A DNA stretch of 43,944 nt from Chloroflexota bacterium. GTDB lineage: Bacteria; Chloroflexota; Dehalococcoidia; UBA3495. A program made the translations under genes and the position numbers. Positions 5,236 to 43,604 of the stretch are shown here, piece after piece. Location of the stretch: positions 1 to 43,944 of the forward strand of contig JADFNR010000010.1 in assembly GCA_022563275.1 (NCBI GenBank), in the 5' to 3' direction. The stretch's first letter is position 1. Every line of letters begins with the position of its first letter. The notes below the pieces were generated by a model. That model saw nothing but the letters and a program-made list of their open reading frames with translations, was not told the origin of the DNA and ran no database searches.

Positions 5236-6357
5236 CTAGATGACCGAAGGCTCCACCACGCCATCCGTGACTGTGTGGTGGTTCGACGGCACGGAACCGT
5301 TCAGCTCCTGCACACGCTTCCGCATCTGGTCCATACGCGAGAAATCGGTGATGCCGGAGATTATCGTGATCGCCGACAGATACTTGGTCCGGCGGTCCGG
5401 ATAGTCGCCGTAGCGGACCTTCCCCACGGTGGTCAACGCCTCCAGCCTGGACCTGCCCACTGATATCGCCTGGGAGAACAGGTGCTCCGGCCTGCCGTGA
5501 ACGATGAGCGACGCCGCCCGGGCACCCGACACATCAGCCGGGAAGGTGAGGGAACTCTTCTCCACGCTCCTTTCAATGATGTTCTCCAACTCGTGGGTAC
5601 CGGGGTCCATTCCATCACGCCAGAAATGGGATTTTATCTTGATCTCCTCAGAGCAATAGCCGATGGTCGATACATCGCCGATCAGACCCAACGTGGCTTT
5701 TATCTCTGAAGAACTGAACACCTCCTGGGGCGGAGGGCGAATCTCACCCGCGGTGAGGATAGTGGTGAGGGTCTGGGCCAGATGCTCGTTGACCCGTTGG
5801 TACATCCTCTCCACCGACTCCCGGGTCACGTGGGGCTGCTCGTACTGCTGATTGTCCACCAACAGGATGTTGTTGAAATAATGGTTCCAGAGCTCGAAAC
5901 TCTTGACCGTGTTGGAAAGGTTGAGCGCCTCTTTTTCATTGGGCATTCCAGATACAGATGGAATAACGCCAATGCCGTAAACCGGGATTTGTTTGTAGAC
6001 CTTCTTCAGTTCGTTGGCCAGGACGAATCCGCCTCCAGCGCCCGTTCCGCCGCTCAGGCCGGCCACGATCCAGATAACTTCAGGGTCCCGTTTCCGGACC
6101 TTGGCGTCGATGGTGTCCATCATCTGGGCCAACGATTTTTCGGCGATGCTGGCTCCCAGGTCGATGTCAGAGCCCACGCCGCGTCCCCGGAGGGCGTATT
6201 TCCCGATCAGGACCTTGTCACGGATGTACCGCAAGCCGGAAAGGTCGGCCTCTTCCGTGTTGACGGCGATGGCGCTGTAGAGACGGCGGTTCATTCCCAT
6301 CAGGGAATTGGCTATCTTGCCCCCCGCCTGTCCAAAACCGATCCAAAGTACTCTCAT
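5236..6357 (-). CDS. CetZ-like tubulin/FtsZ superfamily GTPase
   Basis: A 373-residue tubulin-superfamily protein. The glycine-rich start is WIGFGQAGGKI (residues 5-15), AVNTEEADLSGL follows at 31-42, and the GTP-phosphate loop is GLSGGTGAGGG at 100-110. From memory of the archaeal CetZ proteins, the layout (QAGGKI, AVNT.ADL.GL, GRGVGSDIDLGASIAE, then SSEI..TL...GDVSTIGY at about 234-253) is closer to CetZ than to bacterial FtsZ. By family it should bind GTP and assemble into filaments. The ATG follows GGAGGTAGGGAGAC. No FtsA, MinD or other division gene is adjacent, so a cell-shape or cytoskeletal role is more likely than being the main divisome protein. Confidence 0.82.
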   Translation of the reverse strand: MRVLWIGFGQAGGKIANSLMGMNRRLYSAIAVNTEEADLSGLRYIRDKVLIGKYALRGRGVGSDIDLGASIAEKSLAQMMDTIDAKVRKRDPEVIWIVAGLSGGTGAGGGFVLANELKKVYKQIPVYGIGVIPSVSGMPNEKEALNLSNTVKSFELWNHYFNNILLVDNQQYEQPHVTRESVERMYQRVNEHLAQTLTTILTAGEIRPPPQEVFSSSEIKATLGLIGDVSTIGYCSEEIKIKSHFWRDGMDPGTHELENIIERSVEKSSLTFPADVSGARAASLIVHGRPEHLFSQAISVGRSRLEALTTVGKVRYGDYPDRRTKYLSAITIISGITDFSRMDQMRKRVQELNGSVPSNHHTVTDGVVEPSVI

Positions 6358-23705: not shown

Positions 23706-24395
23706 GTGACCCAATCAGGTCGGACAGGACGGATATTCGTCGGCCGCGACCGGGAGATGACCGGTCTCAGGGCTGCCATGGACGATGCCATGGCGGGCCA
23801 CGGCCGGATGGTGATGCTGGCCGGCGAACCGGGCATCGGGAAGACACGCACGGCCCAAGAACTGGCCTCCTACGCCGAATCGTTGGGCGCACAGGTGTGG
23901 TGGGGGTGGTGTTACGAGCAAAAAGGCGCACCTCCCTACTGGCCGTGGGTCCAGCCCATCCGTACCTATGTCCAACGTACCGACCCCGCATCCCTTGGCG
24001 CCCAGATGGGCCCCGGAGCAGCCGACATCTGCGAGATCATTCCCCAGGTACGTGACAAACTGACCGGCCTTGAGCCGCCGTCGCCCCTTGAGCCGGAACA
24101 GGCGCGCTTCCGATTGTTTGACTCGATTTCTAATTTTCTCGCGAGCCTTGCCCAGTCCCAGCCATTGATGTTGGTGCTGGATGATCTGCATTGGGCAGAC
24201 CAGCCTTCTTTGTTGTTGCTGGAATTCCTGGCCGGCCAGTTGCCAAATAGCAAGATCCTGGTCGTCGGGACCTACCGGGATACTGAGGTGACTCGCACCC
24301 ACCCTCTGTCCAATACCCTGGCCCATTGGCCCGCAGCGACTCCTATCATAGGGAAGAACTTGGAGGACTCGAGAGCGAACACGTCGGCCAGTTGA
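23706..24395 (+). CDS. LuxR-type ATPase, N-terminal part (frameshifted)
   Basis: The first part of a large AAA/STAND-type regulator. After IFVGRDREM it has Walker A GEPGIGKT (residues 40-47) and Walker B LMLVLDDLHWAD (154-165), then VVGTYRDTEV. The reading frame is correct up to about 24326 (HPLSNTLAH), after which the residues stop matching the family and a stop follows at 24395. The natural continuation is in the frame one base off, beginning LARSDSYHREEL. Inserting one T after CAT at 24324-24326 restores a single protein of about 990 residues. The start is GTG at 23706 with a poor ribosome site. Confidence 0.75.
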   Translation: MTQSGRTGRIFVGRDREMTGLRAAMDDAMAGHGRMVMLAGEPGIGKTRTAQELASYAESLGAQVWWGWCYEQKGAPPYWPWVQPIRTYVQRTDPASLGAQMGPGAADICEIIPQVRDKLTGLEPPSPLEPEQARFRLFDSISNFLASLAQSQPLMLVLDDLHWADQPSLLLLEFLAGQLPNSKILVVGTYRDTEVTRTHPLSNTLAHWPAATPIIGKNLEDSRANTSAS

Positions 24396-26674
24396 TTCGG
24401 GACATCAGCGGCGCTGAGCCGTCTCCGGAACTGGTCCAAGCCATCTACAGCCACACTGAAGGCAACCCCTTTTTCATGACCGAGATCATAAGGCTGCTGG
24501 TGGAGAGACGCCTGACCACCGGCGAGCCGGGTGAAGTCGGTCTCGGCGATCTGGAGATACCCCAAGGGGTGCTGGAGGTGATTGGACAGCGGTTGAACCG
24601 GCTATCCCCAGAGTGCGAGGGAGTCCTTACGACAGCAGCCGTTATCGGCCGTCAGTTCGACTTTAAGTTGCTGGGATCACTGAGCGAAGAATCTACCGAG
24701 GCCCAGTTGCTGGCGTCGATGGATGAGGGGCTGGATGCCTTCCTGATTCAAGAGGTCCCAGGGCAAGGGGACGTTTACGAGTTTAGCCACGCCCTGGTCC
24801 AGCAAACGCTGCGGGAGCGGCTTTCCACCAGCAGGAGGGTCAGGCTCCATGCCAAGATCGGGGAAACGCTAGAGACCCTGTACGGAGACCAACCGGGCGA
24901 CCGCGCCGCGGAGTTGGCCTACCATTTCGCTGAGGCCGAGCCGGTGGCCGGAATAGAGAAGCTGGTGAAATACACCATTCTGGCCGGGGAGAGGGCACTT
25001 GAATCTTATGCCTTTGAAGGAGGGCTGGACCACTTTGACCGGGGACTGGTGTCTATTGGCATTGCGTTGACCGGCACCCAGCCCGCACCTGATGAGGAGG
25101 CGGCCGCCCTTTTGTTTGGGAAGGGTTGCGCCCAACTGGCCACAGTGGAACGGCACAGACTATCAGAGGCGGTGTCTTGCCTACGCCGCGCTTTTGACTA
25201 CTACGCGGAAGCAGGTGACGTCGACCGCGCGGTGGCGGTCGCACAACAACCTCTGCCGATGGCACAAGGCATGCTCGCAGGTGCGACCCAACTCGCACTC
25301 CGGGCCCTGGAACTGGTCCAGCGCGGTTCTCATGAGGAAGGACGTCTTTTGGCCCAGTACGCCATACACGTGTACTTTGAGGAAAGCGACGTTGAGGCCG
25401 CGCAGGATGCATTCACGCGGGCCCTGGTTATCGCCCAAGGGGAGGATGATGCGGACCTCGAGTTACGCACCTTGGCCAATGCTGCCAGCGTCGACACCTT
25501 CGAATGCCAATATCAAGCAGCGCTGGAGAAAAGTTTGCGGGGGCTGGAGTTGGCACGCCTGCTGGATAATCCTCGGGCCGAGTTGGGTGTCCAATACAGG
25601 GCCGCCAGTAGTCGAATGCTAACCGGGGACCTTCAAGAAGCGAAACAACACTTAGAGGCCATGCGGGATGTGGCGGACAGACTCCGTGACCGCTTCTGGT
25701 TGTCCAGCGCCTATTTCTTGAGTGCGCAGGCGTCCATTTACGAAGGCGATTGGGAGGCGGCTCGCCGATATTCCGACCAGAGCTTAATGAATCTGTCCAT
25801 GGACTCCCGGAGCCTGGCGACGCGCATGCAATTGGAGTTAGAACTCGGCGAATCCGACCAGGCTGATGTATACCTGGAGCGCCTTCTGGAATCCATGCGG
25901 CTCACCGCTCCCGGCCCAACGGTAGAATATATGCTCGCAGTGCTTGGGATTTCACTCGGTGGACGGATCAGCGGCGACAACCGCAGATTCGAGGCTGCCG
26001 ATGCCGCTGCGGAACCAGTTCTCACCGCTCCTAAATCCTCCCGATTTGTAATGCTCGGCACCAGGGCCGGGCTGGGTTTCTTAGCGGTGCAACGCGGGGA
26101 TTCCGCCGCCGCCTCAAACCACTACGCTTCTCTCACGGCCTGCCGGGGAACAGCAATGGCAGGGATATCATTTGTTTTTGACCGCCTTCTTGGACTCCTG
26201 GCCCGCAATATGGACAACCTAGATCTGGCAGTAGAACATTTCGAGGACGCCTTGGCCTTCTGCCGAAACGGGAGGTATCGGCCCGAGCTCGCCTGGTCTT
26301 GCTATGACTACGCAGAAGCGCTCCTCCAAAGAAACGGACCTGGCGATCACCAGAGAGCCGGATCGCTGGTGGAAGAGTCGCTGTCCATCTCTAGCGAGCT
26401 GGCCATGCGACCGCTCATGGAGCACGTTGTAGCCCTTCAAGACAAGACGCAGTCGACGCCAACGCGTGCCCCGGCCCATCCCGGCGGCCTCACCCAGCGG
26501 GAGGTTGATGTCATTCGGTTGATCGCAGCAGGCCGCACCGACCGGGAGATCGCCGATGTACTGGTCATCGCCGTCCGTACCGTCACCACCCACGTCGGCA
26601 ACATCCTCAACAAGACCGGCGCCGCCAACCGGGCCGAAGCGGCGAGTTATGCCACCCGCCATGGATTGGAATAG
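24326..26674 (+). CDS. LuxR-type ATPase, C-terminal part (frameshifted)
   Basis: The second part of the same regulator, in the next frame. It begins inside the ATPase module (SHTEGNPFFMTEIIRLLVE is the typical sensor/winged-helix passage), continues with a long helical TPR-like region, and ends in a LuxR/GerE helix-turn-helix over the last 63 residues (LTQREVDVIRLIAAGRTDREIA, TVTTHVGNILNKTGAANR). The TTG at 24326 is only the first possible start; no ribosome site precedes it. Together with the N-terminal part it is a MalT/LAL-like signal-transduction ATPase that would activate transcription. Either it is a pseudogene or the assembly lost one T; the long intact frame on both sides favours a recent or artefactual change. 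Confidence 0.75.
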   Translation: MARSDSYHREELGGLESEHVGQLIRDISGAEPSPELVQAIYSHTEGNPFFMTEIIRLLVERRLTTGEPGEVGLGDLEIPQGVLEVIGQRLNRLSPECEGVLTTAAVIGRQFDFKLLGSLSEESTEAQLLASMDEGLDAFLIQEVPGQGDVYEFSHALVQQTLRERLSTSRRVRLHAKIGETLETLYGDQPGDRAAELAYHFAEAEPVAGIEKLVKYTILAGERALESYAFEGGLDHFDRGLVSIGIALTGTQPAPDEEAAALLFGKGCAQLATVERHRLSEAVSCLRRAFDYYAEAGDVDRAVAVAQQPLPMAQGMLAGATQLALRALELVQRGSHEEGRLLAQYAIHVYFEESDVEAAQDAFTRALVIAQGEDDADLELRTLANAASVDTFECQYQAALEKSLRGLELARLLDNPRAELGVQYRAASSRMLTGDLQEAKQHLEAMRDVADRLRDRFWLSSAYFLSAQASIYEGDWEAARRYSDQSLMNLSMDSRSLATRMQLELELGESDQADVYLERLLESMRLTAPGPTVEYMLAVLGISLGGRISGDNRRFEAADAAAEPVLTAPKSSRFVMLGTRAGLGFLAVQRGDSAAASNHYASLTACRGTAMAGISFVFDRLLGLLARNMDNLDLAVEHFEDALAFCRNGRYRPELAWSCYDYAEALLQRNGPGDHQRAGSLVEESLSISSELAMRPLMEHVVALQDKTQSTPTRAPAHPGGLTQREVDVIRLIAAGRTDREIADVLVIAVRTVTTHVGNILNKTGAANRAEAASYATRHGLE

Positions 26675-26767: not shown

Positions 26768-26810
26768 GGCGAGAGACTACGTAGGACTACGTAGTCCTTC
26801 GCCTTTTTTG
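26768..26810 (+). terminator. Intrinsic terminator of LuxR ATPase
   Basis: GGCGA...ACTACGTA-GGAC-TACGTAGT...TCGCC followed by six T, about 95 bases past the LuxR-type stop. The inner 8-bp arms are perfect. Confidence 0.88.
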
Positions 26811-26906
26811 TTTTTCCCCCTTTTTAAAAAATCCGCAATTTTTACGATGGCGTGCCGTCTTGCCGAAATTATTATTGGGCTACAACGAATCGATGAGGTG
26901 GACGAC

Positions 26907-27464
26907 ATGAAATTCTCACTTAACAGCCAGGCGAACAACATCAACGGCACGGCAACCCAGGGAACGAAATCAGTAATAGATGAGGCGATAGAAATGAAAA
27001 ACGCGAACACTAACATACAGATGAATATCGGCAACTCCGGCGCCCTGGTAATCAAGAACACCGCAAGATTGCTCGGCGGACTGGCCGTGGCCGCGATGGT
27101 GGCGATGGCCGCCACCTTCGGTTCGGTTTCGGCCGACAGCCCATCCGTGTCCAGTAGCTTTGTGGCCCACGGACCCAATGAGATGGACATCGAGTATCTC
27201 AACAAACTGGGCAACAACTTCCTGGTCCACGACTACGACGCCATCCAGCCCTCGGCCAAGGTCAATAACTTCCTGGTCCACGACTACGACGCCGTCCAGC
27301 CCTCGGCCAGGGTCAATAACTTCCTGGTCCACGACTACGACGCCGTCCAGCCCTCGGCCAGGGTCAATAACTTCCTGGTCCACGACTACGACGCCGTCCA
27401 GCCCTCGGCCTGGGTCAACAACTTCTACGTTCACGGCCCCGACACCTCCGAGTGGACTGGATAA
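26907..27464 (+). CDS. Secreted 17-residue-repeat protein
   Basis: A 185-residue protein from the ATG at 26907 (GAGGTG 6 bases upstream); an inner ATG at about 26994, also with a GAGG, is an alternative start. A hydrophobic segment, LLGGLAVAAMVAMAATFGSVSADSP, looks like a signal peptide with cleavage after VSA. The mature part is short: FVAHGPNEMD, then four 17-residue repeats of NFLVHDYDAVQPSARVN type, then NNFYVHGPDTSEWTG. I know no such family. The repeats alternate hydrophobic and acidic/His residues and might bind metal or form a beta stack. A terminator follows, so it is a one-gene unit. Confidence 0.7.
   Translation: MKFSLNSQANNINGTATQGTKSVIDEAIEMKNANTNIQMNIGNSGALVIKNTARLLGGLAVAAMVAMAATFGSVSADSPSVSSSFVAHGPNEMDIEYLNKLGNNFLVHDYDAIQPSAKVNNFLVHDYDAVQPSARVNNFLVHDYDAVQPSARVNNFLVHDYDAVQPSAWVNNFYVHGPDTSEWTG
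27216..27419 (+). repeat. Four 51-bp tandem repeats (coding)
   Basis: Four in-frame copies of a 51-base unit at 27216, 27267, 27318 and 27369, nearly identical at DNA level; differences include Ile/Val and Lys/Arg/Trp codons. Such low divergence means recent expansion or ongoing homogenisation, so copy number may vary between strains. Confidence 0.95.
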
Positions 27465-41180: not shown

Positions 41181-41552
41181 ATGTCTTTACAAGGACGAGG
41201 CAGCCTTACTAATGCCGGTTTGACCAGAGCGCAATTGCGTCAGGGAGGAGGCCGCGGCAACGGCAACGACCACTTCGACGAGTTGATCGGCGCCACTGAA
41301 CTTTTCGTGTACCAAACGCCCAACAAGAAACCCAAGGGCTTCGAATCGCTGAAACTATTCCTGGAAGCTTCCGAGTGCGAGCTCATCTTCACCGTGGACG
41401 TTCCGCCGGAACTGAAGAACTACGAAACCTTCCGCATAACCCACAGGTCCGGCGAGAAGATTCCCGACCCGGTGCTGCGCCGCTGCCACTCCTGGGCCCA
41501 CGGCCGCAACTTCCTCCACAGCTTCTTCAAGCCCATGTACGGCGGCCGGTAG
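41181..41552 (+). CDS. Conserved-looking hypothetical protein, 123 aa
   Basis: A 123-residue protein I do not recognise. The first 30 residues are Gly/Arg/Gln-rich (GLTRAQLRQGGGRGNGND) and probably disordered. Residues 31-110 look like a mixed alpha/beta fold (DELIGATELFVYQTPNKKPK, SECELIFTVDVPPELKNYE). It has its own strong terminator. A possible promoter or coupling to the lactonase 116 bases upstream is unclear. Confidence 0.55.
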   Translation: MSLQGRGSLTNAGLTRAQLRQGGGRGNGNDHFDELIGATELFVYQTPNKKPKGFESLKLFLEASECELIFTVDVPPELKNYETFRITHRSGEKIPDPVLRRCHSWAHGRNFLHSFFKPMYGGR

Positions 41553-41568
41553 AGCCCGTTCGCTAGAA

Positions 41569-41606
41569 TAGAAAAGACCCGGCGGAAATCCGCCGGGTCT
41601 TTTCTA
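41569..41606 (+). terminator. Intrinsic terminator
   Basis: AAAAGACCCGGCGG-AAAT-CCGCCGGGTCTTTTC, a 14-bp stem with a T-rich tail, 18 bases after the stop of the 123-aa gene. Confidence 0.93.
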
Positions 41607-41664
41607 TCCATCCATTTCCCTGCAACGGGACTCGCCACAGAACTGTCATTCTGACGAGGCCCCA

Positions 41665-41694
41665 GCCGACAAAGAATCTACCAATCCGCACCTT
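41665..41694 (+). repeat. Left copy of flanking direct repeat
   Basis: GCCGACAAAGAATCTACCAA and ten further bases match the segment at 43478-43507 at about 25 of 30 positions in the same orientation. The flanking GTCATTCTGACGAGG resembles a widespread REP-like extragenic element. Together the two copies bound the E2-like/STAS module. Confidence 0.6.
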
Positions 41695-41701
41695 GGAGTC
41701 G

Positions 41702-42448
41702 TTATTGGCTACTTAGCAGCTCCAGACGCTGGACGAATGCCGAGTTTATGTCGGTCGCATGATGACAATTCCGATAAGCTTTACCGCGACCGCAAGGGCA
41801 AGGCCCGTCCAACTTTGCTTGATTCAAAACTTCCAGTGGCTCATGGCCTGCGTCGGGACCGAACCATCTTCCCATCGAAAGAAGGCCCTTCCCACCTGTA
41901 GCGGTCCAAACTTCAGCTTTGAGAAGCCAAATAGCGCAATGGTCAAGGTATCCTAATGTTCCTCCATGCTCCCAGTCCCAGGTGGTTTCATGCGGTGCGA
42001 TGGGGCAAGCCCAGATGTCCTTGCCGTTGTTTCCGAAATACAAATGAGGATGATTAGGGCCGATGATTCCAGGACTAAGCACCCGAAACTTCGGATGGAC
42101 TGGACCTACCTCGCCGTTAATGATGGTCGGGTATTCCAACTCGACTTCAATCCGCCTATTAATTAGTCGTATAGCCGACCAATTCCTTTCTTGGTCGTGA
42201 TCGAAATCACATTCCGGAAGGTGAGCGATTTTTCCATTAGCTCCGATACTCACCAAATTTCCTTCCTCTAGGTCTCCTAGAACTAATGCGACTTCCTCCC
42301 GAATCGGGACGTGATCCATGGTTAGCTTCCAAACACCCACGGTCTCACCACTGACATTCGCACGTTGAATGAACCGAGCGCCAGAGTAATAATTGATTAC
42401 TGAATGGCGCTCAGTTTTCCACCAGGCAGAGTTCATCCACCTCACCAC
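41702..42448 (-). CDS. E2-like (UBC fold) protein with SEC-C tail
   Basis: A 248-residue protein. The middle part (about residues 98-208) reads like a prokaryotic ubiquitin-conjugating E2: FRVLSPGI, HPHLYFG, then DIWACPIAP with Cys148 where the catalytic cysteine would be, TTWDWEHGGTLGYL, and WLLKAEVWTATGG followed by RWFGPDAGHEP, close to the WLxxYExWxxTGxWxG...H end of bacterial E2 domains known from CBASS and related systems. The C-terminus is a SEC-C zinc motif, GPCPCGRGKAYRNCHH (Cys217, Cys219, Cys228). The first 95 residues match nothing I know. Start is GTG at 42448 or ATG at 42436. It overlaps the micro-ORF by 7 bases, so the two are likely coupled. No E1, JAB or ubiquitin-like gene is visible. 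Confidence 0.6.
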   Translation of the reverse strand: MVRWMNSAWWKTERHSVINYYSGARFIQRANVSGETVGVWKLTMDHVPIREEVALVLGDLEEGNLVSIGANGKIAHLPECDFDHDQERNWSAIRLINRRIEVELEYPTIINGEVGPVHPKFRVLSPGIIGPNHPHLYFGNNGKDIWACPIAPHETTWDWEHGGTLGYLDHCAIWLLKAEVWTATGGKGLLSMGRWFGPDAGHEPLEVLNQAKLDGPCPCGRGKAYRNCHHATDINSAFVQRLELLSSQ

Positions 42449-42573
42449 AATTTGCAGGAACCCCCATGTGGTCGTTCCGGCTCGACGATTCTTGGTGGTG
42501 GTACCCCTTCTGGTTTTCCGGGGCTATCTGGGCGACCTGGATCAACTGGCGGTATTCCATCTGGTTTATTCAT
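42442..42573 (-). CDS. Proline-rich micro-ORF, 43 aa
   Basis: ATG at 42573, 43 codons, rich in Pro and Gly (MNKPDGIPPVDPGRPDSPGK at the start) and ending HGGSCKLW. AAAGGA lies 14 bases before the ATG, a loose fit. Its stop overlaps the start of the E2-like gene (42448-42442), which supports translation. The Gly-Gly four to five residues from the end recalls the tail of ubiquitin-like modifiers, but 43 Pro-rich residues cannot make a beta-grasp fold. No family is recognised. Confidence 0.4.
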   Translation of the reverse strand: MNKPDGIPPVDPGRPDSPGKPEGVPPPRIVEPERPHGGSCKLW

Positions 42574-42723
42574 CGATCAGTCCACAATCCTTTCTTCAAA
42601 ATAGGCGGTGAATCGAGTTCACATAAATATTGTCACCATTAATTTCAATGGTGTCAATGAATAATTAGGGCTAAATTAGCCACTTTTATTTACGCTGCCG
42701 GATTTTGCTCTTACGGGATTAAG

Positions 42724-43284
42724 CTAATGGACAAAAGAGTAAAGATATTGCACACGGCCAGACTTTGATGCCAAGCGATGAATTAGTCCGAATCGGGTAA
42801 GTCTGGCGAGTCGTTCATTACATGCTGTCACTCGGATATTTAGTTGCGCGGCTAGGTCTGTTGCGCTAATCGGCTTGCCCGTGTCGCTAAGAGCTTTTAA
42901 CGTATTTTCGTCGGCTCCGCTAAACTTTCCGATCAGCTCCCACGTTTTGTCGACGAGCTCCAGCATCATTACACCGGCTCTGTGGAGCGCGGCCTCTAGG
43001 TTTTCTCGCACATGTGGGGCTAAATTCGAGACAGCTATACACCGGCCCGGATATTCGTTGGGGAATCTGAGCACTAGCTTGGCAAAAAACTCACTCGCAA
43101 ACGAAAAATCAAACACCTTTACGCCTGAAGCGTTGATCACCATGAGAGAATCAGCGGACATTTTTCCGATAATACTTTCAATTTCTTCTCGGAGTCTGCT
43201 CGCCCAATCTCTGGTCCACAGTGCGGACCCATCTTTCGCGAGTTGAAACACTTCTCTTTCCTCTCCTGTCAGCGTGGTCGCCAT
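42724..43284 (-). CDS. STAS-like/winged-helix protein
   Basis: A 186-residue protein. Residues 25-115 resemble the STAS-like DUF4325 domain (SADSLMVINASGVKVFDFSFASEFFAKLVLRFP), usually found beside anti-sigma-type ATPases or defence genes. Residues 135-186 look like a winged helix (PISATDLAAQLNIRVTACNERLARLTRFGLIHRLA). It could be a phosphoregulated or stress-responsive transcription factor. AGAGGAGGCCTATT precedes the ATG. It lies upstream of the micro-ORF and E2-like gene on the same strand, with a 150-base AT-rich gap. Confidence 0.7.
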   Translation of the reverse strand: MATTLTGEEREVFQLAKDGSALWTRDWASRLREEIESIIGKMSADSLMVINASGVKVFDFSFASEFFAKLVLRFPNEYPGRCIAVSNLAPHVRENLEAALHRAGVMMLELVDKTWELIGKFSGADENTLKALSDTGKPISATDLAAQLNIRVTACNERLARLTRFGLIHRLASKSGRVQYLYSFVH

Positions 43285-43604
43285 AATAGGCCTCCTCTTT
43301 GGGGTAGGTTAAGGTCTACCTGAGCGTCTTCCAACTTGGGAATCTGACACGTGGAAATTGTTTGCTCAACCATGCTGTACGACTGCAGTTGGTTGCCGTA
43401 ACGGTACCAAATAAAAAAATATATTTCAATGTATTCACTGGCGAGTTAAAATAACCTCCCCCTGGTGATTACCGTAGGCCGACGAAGTATCTGCCAATCT
43501 CCACCTTTGCGGACCCTGATTCTTCCGCGGAAGGGTCAGGGTGACATTTGGGCGGCGCATCGCTACCCGGAAACTCGGTACGGACAATGAGCTAGAGGTT
43601 AACC
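43285..43604. other. Intergenic region with REP-like elements
   Basis: The left part is AT-rich (an A/T run around 43410-43430) and may hold the promoter of the STAS-like gene. The right part holds the second copy of the flanking repeat and a palindromic ACCCTGA...TCAGGGT element with CTTCCGCGGAAG in its centre. No gene is seen. Confidence 0.5.
43478..43507 (+). repeat. Right copy of flanking direct repeat
   Basis: GCCGACGAAGTATCTGCCAA plus ten bases, about 25 of 30 identical to 41665-41694. It is followed by the palindrome ACCCTGATTCTTCC...GGTCAGGGT (about 43513-43542). REP-type extragenic sequence is the simplest reading. Confidence 0.6.

What the first reader, a model, noticed from the sequence alone, without database searches (positions are those of the whole stretch)
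41702..43284. E2-like/SEC-C, proline-rich micro-ORF and STAS-like gene form a compact accessory module
Three minus-strand genes sit together: a STAS-like/winged-helix protein, a 43-aa Pro/Gly-rich peptide ending in Gly-Gly plus a few residues, and a protein that reads as a bacterial E2 (Cys148 in WACPI; HPHLYFG; WLLKAEVW...GRWFGPDAGH) fused to a SEC-C zinc motif. The micro-ORF stop overlaps the E2-like start. The segment is AT-richer than its neighbours and bounded by similar repeats. Bacterial E2 domains usually come with E1, JAB or CD-NTase genes; none is here, so this may be an undescribed minimal conjugation or defence unit.
Basis: partly seen in the sequence, partly recalled or inferred. 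Interest (0 to 1): 0.75.

Follow-up and report, generated by a model that had tools for sequence, protein, structure and literature searches.

The report
Solo bacterial E2 with zinc tail
A bacterial gene here encodes a divergent ubiquitin-conjugating-type (E2) enzyme related to those of a known anti-phage system, but its usual partner gene was not found beside it, so its target is an open question; the three-gene unit first proposed is not supported.

Summary
The gene at 41702-42448 (-) encodes an E2 (UBC-fold) protein with a C-terminal SEC-C motif. Cys148 and HPH133-135 are identical in 29 of 29 aligned rows. The AlphaFold model (pLDDT 87) matches UEV/E2/RWD structures in the 50 rows listed, among them the CBASS E2 of Serratia and Cap2. 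A PADLOC E2 model matches 27 of 29 rows, and a profile of 12 plasmid CBASS-type E2s puts its invariant cysteine opposite Cys148. E2s without E1 are a known kind (short type II CBASS), and PADLOC already holds E2 models with a SEC-C-like segment.

What differs: no CD-NTase or effector was recognised beside it. Upstream lies a STAS-like/winged-helix regulator; linkage of the two families could not be shown. The 43-aa micro-ORF is not clearly above chance (about 10%), although its HGG-plus-tail end recalls the tails of CD-NTases. The flanking direct repeat is real. Most likely: a CBASS-type, E1-independent E2, repurposed or acting on a partner encoded elsewhere. The DNA around its homologues could not be read, so the module question stays open.

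The parts
41702..42448 (-). E2 (UBC-fold) protein with C-terminal SEC-C motif, 248 aa, GTG start (or ATG at 42436)
42005..42007 (-). codon of Cys148 (WACPI), opposite the invariant Cys of CBASS-type E2s
   Evidence: 29 of 29 rows; profile alignment
42044..42052 (-). HPH motif, residues 133-135
   Evidence: 29 of 29 rows
41759..41803 (-). SEC-C motif, residues 216-230
   Evidence: PF02810 21.5 bits; Cys217, 219 and 228 each in 27 of 29 rows
42442..42573 (-). 43-aa Pro/Gly-rich ORF ending HGGSCKLW; coding status not established
42629..42657 (-). sigma-70-like site TTGACA-17-GACAAT upstream of the micro-ORF and E2
   Evidence: 10 of 12 consensus matches; 3 such sites in the region against 2.0 in shuffles
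42634..42653 (-). inverted repeat CACCATT-6-AATGGTG within that site, possible operator
42724..43284 (-). STAS-like (DUF4325) + winged-helix protein, 186 aa, probable transcription regulator
41665..41694 (+). left copy of 30-nt direct repeat
43478..43507 (+). right copy of 30-nt direct repeat
41644..41654 (+). TGTCATTCTGA, left one of an inverted pair
43536..43546 (-). TGTCACCCTGA, right one of an inverted pair

Best explanation
The gene encodes a divergent, solo relative of the E2 enzymes of short type II CBASS, with a SEC-C tail. Shown: a predicted UBC fold, invariant Cys148 and HPH, profile kinship to CBASS-type E2s, the SEC-C motif, and no recognisable CD-NTase or effector beside it. Inferred: Cys148 forms a thioester with the C-terminal glycine of a partner protein without a separate E1 and passes it to an amine; SEC-C holds a zinc ion and helps bind the partner or target. 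The partner is not an adjacent CD-NTase: it is encoded elsewhere in the genome, or the enzyme has been put to another use. The STAS-like/winged-helix gene upstream is probably a regulator that may have come with the same 1.8-kb AT-rich segment between the repeats; that it acts with the E2 is not shown.
Confidence: 0.55

Rival explanations
1. Orphaned CBASS part: the E2 is a leftover of a short type II CBASS whose CD-NTase and effector were lost, with no present function.
For: No CD-NTase or effector recognised beside it; repeat-bounded segment. In the Chroococcidiopsis plasmid L004 an IS4 transposase gene is listed where other loci have the nucleotidyltransferase.
Against: The reading frame is intact and Cys148 and HPH are identical in 29 of 29 rows down to 35% identity, with SEC-C cysteines in 27 of 29; this is a maintained family, though its other members may have partners that this one lost.
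Confidence: 0.17
2. The first reader's module: the E2, the 43-aa peptide and the STAS-like protein act together, with the peptide as a modifier joined through its Gly-Gly.
For: Adjacency and shared composition. Proteins encoded directly upstream of the plasmid E2s end in F[FYH]G plus 1-4 residues in 10 of 11 cases read, and six of ten such gene pairs overlap; the micro-ORF overlaps by 7 nt and ends HGG plus five residues.
Against: Such an ORF is expected in about 10% of random sequences, and GG within the last 8 residues in 11% of shuffles of its own residues (HG: 2.5%); codon score 5th or 4th of six frames; the F before His-Gly is missing; no family match; no STAS linkage seen on other contigs.
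Confidence: 0.12
3. A non-catalytic UEV-like binding protein: the fold binds a C-terminal tail or peptide without conjugating it.
Against: Cys148 is identical in 29 of 29 rows and lies opposite the invariant Cys of CBASS-type E2s.
Confidence: 0.08

Closest known systems
E2 of short type II CBASS (Serratia marcescens CdnG-E2, PDB 8hsb/8yjy; PADLOC 'E2')
   Same: UBC fold, Cys with a PH motif before it, W..TG.W.G...H stretch after the long helix, no E1 domain
   Different: About 50 residues between the strands 36-44 and 100-105 of the model, a SEC-C tail, a Y-L-D stretch where the others have T-I-I-P-W (my reading), and no CD-NTase or effector recognised beside it
PADLOC E2 models that match the SEC-C tail (PDLC00861, 865, 870, 871, 872)
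   Same: A SEC-C-like segment towards the C-terminus of a model named E2
   Different: The one stretch reported is the SEC-C part; the E2 parts gave no stretch of their own for the window protein
Cap2 E1-E2 fusion of type II CBASS (PDB 7tqd)
   Different: No E1 domain and no CD-NTase here
E2 of a multiubiquitin/JAB operon (L004:89-469)
   Same: An E2-like gene
   Different: Profile comparison with this one protein gave probability 0.6%; no E1, JAB or Ub-like gene recognised among the neighbours scanned
STAS-like/winged-helix regulators (PDB 9z71, 9z72, 9z73; DUF4325)
   Same: Nearly full-length profile match of the upstream gene's family, E 2.3e-7 and 1.4e-5
   Different: Their biological setting was not learned here

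Membership tests
E2 / UBC fold | UBC fold | tested here: met
E2 / UBC fold | catalytic Cys at the E2 position | tested here: met
   29 of 29 rows; opposite the invariant Cys of CBASS-type E2s
E2 / UBC fold | thioester and conjugation activity | not testable with these tools
   needs biochemistry
Short type II CBASS | E2 of the CBASS type, no E1 | tested here: met
   PADLOC E2 in 27 of 29 rows; hhalign 92.4%
Short type II CBASS | CD-NTase encoded next to the E2 | tested here: not met
   Neighbouring ORFs match no CD-NTase model; tblastn of 11 proteins from the CD-NTase position against the window, best E 0.062
Short type II CBASS | effector (phospholipase, SAVED, etc.) adjacent | tested here: not met
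   Neighbours are a STAS-like regulator, a 123-aa protein without family and a fragment with a weak PuuE match
Ubiquitin-like (E1/JAB/Ubl) operons | E1, JAB and Ub-like genes with the E2 | tested here: inconclusive
   None recognised among the neighbours by Pfam or PADLOC; one JAB as tblastn query gave best E 0.35; no E1 query was run over the window
SEC-C (PF02810) | match above the curated cut-off | tested here: met
   21.5 vs 20.4 bits
DUF4325 STAS-like (upstream gene) | Pfam match above the curated cut-off | tested here: inconclusive
   Window protein 12.8 vs 23 bits; 7 of 7 family members match at E<=1, best 3.5e-6
Conserved three-gene module | same gene order in relatives | tested here: inconclusive
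   No shared longest-contig lengths between 29 E2 and 6 STAS relatives; scans for readable loci found none

The most novel reading that the evidence does not exclude
A cyclase-free, E1-free peptide-ligation pair: the CBASS-type E2 acts on the free-standing 43-aa peptide encoded just upstream, whose HGG-plus-tail end takes the place of the F[FYH]G tail of CD-NTases, and joins it to other proteins through Cys148. The flexible CD-NTase tail would have become a separate tag. (A variant: the tag is the convergent 123-aa neighbour, which ends MYGGR.)
Probability: 0.08. Interest if true: 0.85.

Novelty: new variant of a known kind. Interest (0 to 1): 0.42.

Why it matters
[quoted passage not shown] A conserved E2 of the CBASS kind that stands without a cyclase would be a candidate. 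The 29-row alignment and a confident model give a start for finding its substrate.

Tried and rejected
Genome and viral scans for E2 relatives found none; the same for the STAS protein in viral contigs. One viral-contig hit to the 123-aa neighbour was a 16-residue stretch and was not used. Phage and plasmid tblastn with the E2 gave only weak or SEC-C matches, but one weak plasmid hit (E 3) proved to be a PADLOC E2 beside a nucleotidyltransferase and opened the comparison with 12 such E2s.

A first structure model from 12 sequences was poor (pLDDT 54.8) and was not used. A shared operator upstream of both genes was considered: the best 18-mer match (14/18) is reached in 16 of 200 shuffles, so it was dropped. 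A structured leader RNA is not supported: z 0.52, and no Rfam match over its gathering score. The viral fold library gave no match at E<=0.001. Pfam PF26395, precomputed for 5 of the 29 E2 relatives (P0004, P0007, P0022, P0024, P0026), is not in the Pfam copy here, and the one paper search for it found nothing, so its name is unknown to me.

Literature: searches. Of PMC12804361, PMC10097602, PMC11153139, PMC1779556, PMC12355090, PMC12135389 and PMC12657218 I saw passages only. Yan et al. 2024 (Nat. Microbiol.) was seen only as a title in reference lists; what its title says beyond that is recalled. Searches (SEC-C + ubiquitin + CBASS: 0 papers; SEC-C motif + ubiquitin: 6 papers, listing only) showed none on a bacterial E2-SEC-C protein.

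Full report
What is there. The segment is AT-richer than the window: GC 0.505 (E2), 0.496 (STAS) and 0.373 (intergenic) against 0.599. It is framed by a 30-nt direct repeat, 25 of 30 identical, at 41665-41694 and 43478-43507. The aligned flanks score 40; the highest of 1975 random pairs of window pieces scored 39. TGTCAYYCTGA stands at both ends in inverted orientation. Each pattern occurs twice in the window, and 0 of 100 shuffles held two; the patterns were written after seeing the copies, and the flanks in inverted orientation score only 26, the 95th percentile of the random pairs.

The E2 protein. Two protein searches gave 29 relatives, P0001-P0029, counting the window's near-copy P0001; one further hit, P0030, is SecA and was dropped. 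Alignment A2 has 29 rows: the window protein and P0002-P0029. HPH133-135, A147, C148, W157 and W159 are identical in 29 of 29 rows, and the three SEC-C cysteines each in 27 of 29. Pfam sees only SEC-C, in 19 of 29, besides one chance match in one row. PADLOC sees E2: PDLC00873 in 27 of 29, PDLC00876 in 23, PDLC00877 in 17 at E<=0.1. For the window protein itself the models that match its E2 part score E 7.3e-5 to 2.4e-3, and five further E2 models match it by the SEC-C stretch. Two of those five, PDLC00865 and 872, also match one of the 12 plasmid E2s below, so E2 with a SEC-C-like tail is already in that library.

Kinship to CBASS E2s. A weak plasmid hit (E 3) led to a Brasilonema plasmid, where the matched protein is a PADLOC E2 (E 9e-30) directly after a nucleotidyltransferase gene, and matches 8hsb_B at 7.5e-19. 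It has matches in 82 plasmid records, 40 of them listed. I fetched 12 of these 40, chosen for variety, and aligned 11 of them with the Brasilonema protein (12 rows). The Arthrobacter locus L013 was left out because its listed gene covers only part of the match; the L004 row lacks some N-terminal residues. Profile comparison: probability 92.4, E 5.2e-7, 85 columns, Cys148 opposite the invariant Cys. All 12 match PADLOC E2 models. Ten of the 12 have a gene annotated nucleotidyltransferase directly upstream, which I take for the CD-NTase without testing each; L004 has a transposase there and L005 has none listed. The same comparison with one E2 of a multiubiquitin operon gave 0.6%, though a single sequence is a weaker test.

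Neighbours. The upstream gene's family is STAS-like + winged helix: DUF4325 and HTH_20 in 7 of 7 at E<=1, with nearly full-length matches to solved regulators 9z71 and 9z72. Before the micro-ORF lies a TTGACA-17-GACAAT site with an inverted repeat in it; promoter-like sites in this region number 3 against 2.0 in shuffles, so it is a suggestion only. Downstream and convergent is a 123-aa protein without family matches, and beyond the STAS gene a fragment with a weak PuuE match. Neither is recognised as a CD-NTase or effector. By tblastn, 11 proteins from the CD-NTase position, one JAB, one operon E2 and one further nucleotidyltransferase found nothing better than E 0.062 in the window.

The micro-ORF. 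Chance gives an ATG ORF of at least 41 codons open at the E2 start in 9.8% of 20,000 Markov sequences. Its codon score ranks 5th of six frames when trained on other window genes and 4th when trained on E2 and STAS; the score is poor at picking the STAS frame too. In its favour: the proteins directly upstream of the plasmid E2s end in F[FYH]G followed by 1-4 residues in 10 of 11 read (L014 is the miss), and six of ten such gene pairs overlap; the micro-ORF ends HGG plus five and overlaps by 7 nt if GTG is the start. But GG within the last eight residues comes up in 11% of shuffles of its own residues (2.5% for HG), and the aromatic residue is missing.

Recurrence. The homologues' DNA was out of reach. 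As a stand-in I compared longest-contig lengths: 29 E2 relatives and 6 STAS relatives share none, and four E2 contigs (99.6 kb, 285 kb, 888 kb, 1.2 Mb) are longer than the longest contig of any detected STAS relative (47.8 kb), so no detected STAS relative lies on them. Only the longest contig of each cluster is told, and the search misses relatives that share no five-residue words, so this is weak evidence.

Mechanism. Predicted fold, Cys and kinship are shown; the reaction is inferred. For a short type II CBASS with only an E2, joining of cyclases to each other has been proposed (passage in PMC11153139). By kinship, Cys148 would take a partner's C-terminal glycine as a thioester. The partner is unknown. 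I set 0.55 on this reading, and about 0.93 on the E2 fold and family alone.

Verdict. An E2-SEC-C family related to CBASS E2s, here without a recognisable cyclase: a new variant of a known kind. The three-gene module is not supported, and not excluded.

Noticed in passing
window 41181-41552 (+): Convergent 123-aa protein with typical host codon use, no match in Pfam, PADLOC, NCBIfam or PHROGs, ending in MYGGR; followed by a perfect 19-bp inverted repeat at 41568-41607.
   Followed up: partly
L004 (Chroococcidiopsis plasmid, 121132-126572): Multiubiquitin, E2 and JAB genes and a CBASS-type E2 + SAVED pair lie side by side, with an IS4 transposase gene where other loci have the nucleotidyltransferase.
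   Followed up: no
window 5236-6357 (-): FtsZ-like protein (NCBIfam ftsZ 64 bits, well below the cut-off of 295), possibly a divergent FtsZ/tubulin relative.
   Followed up: no
window 23706-24395 and 24326-26674 (+): An ATPase-like and a LuxR-like ORF overlap in different frames; by reading they look like two parts of one MalT-like gene.
   Followed up: no
window 26808-27464 (+): Protein with four near-identical repeats of the type VNNFLVHDYDAVQPSAR.
   Followed up: no
PADLOC PDLC00816: A 542-position cyclase model matches all 12 plasmid E2s, the Brasilonema one at model positions 423-540, so CD-NTase-E2 fusions seem to exist.
   Followed up: no
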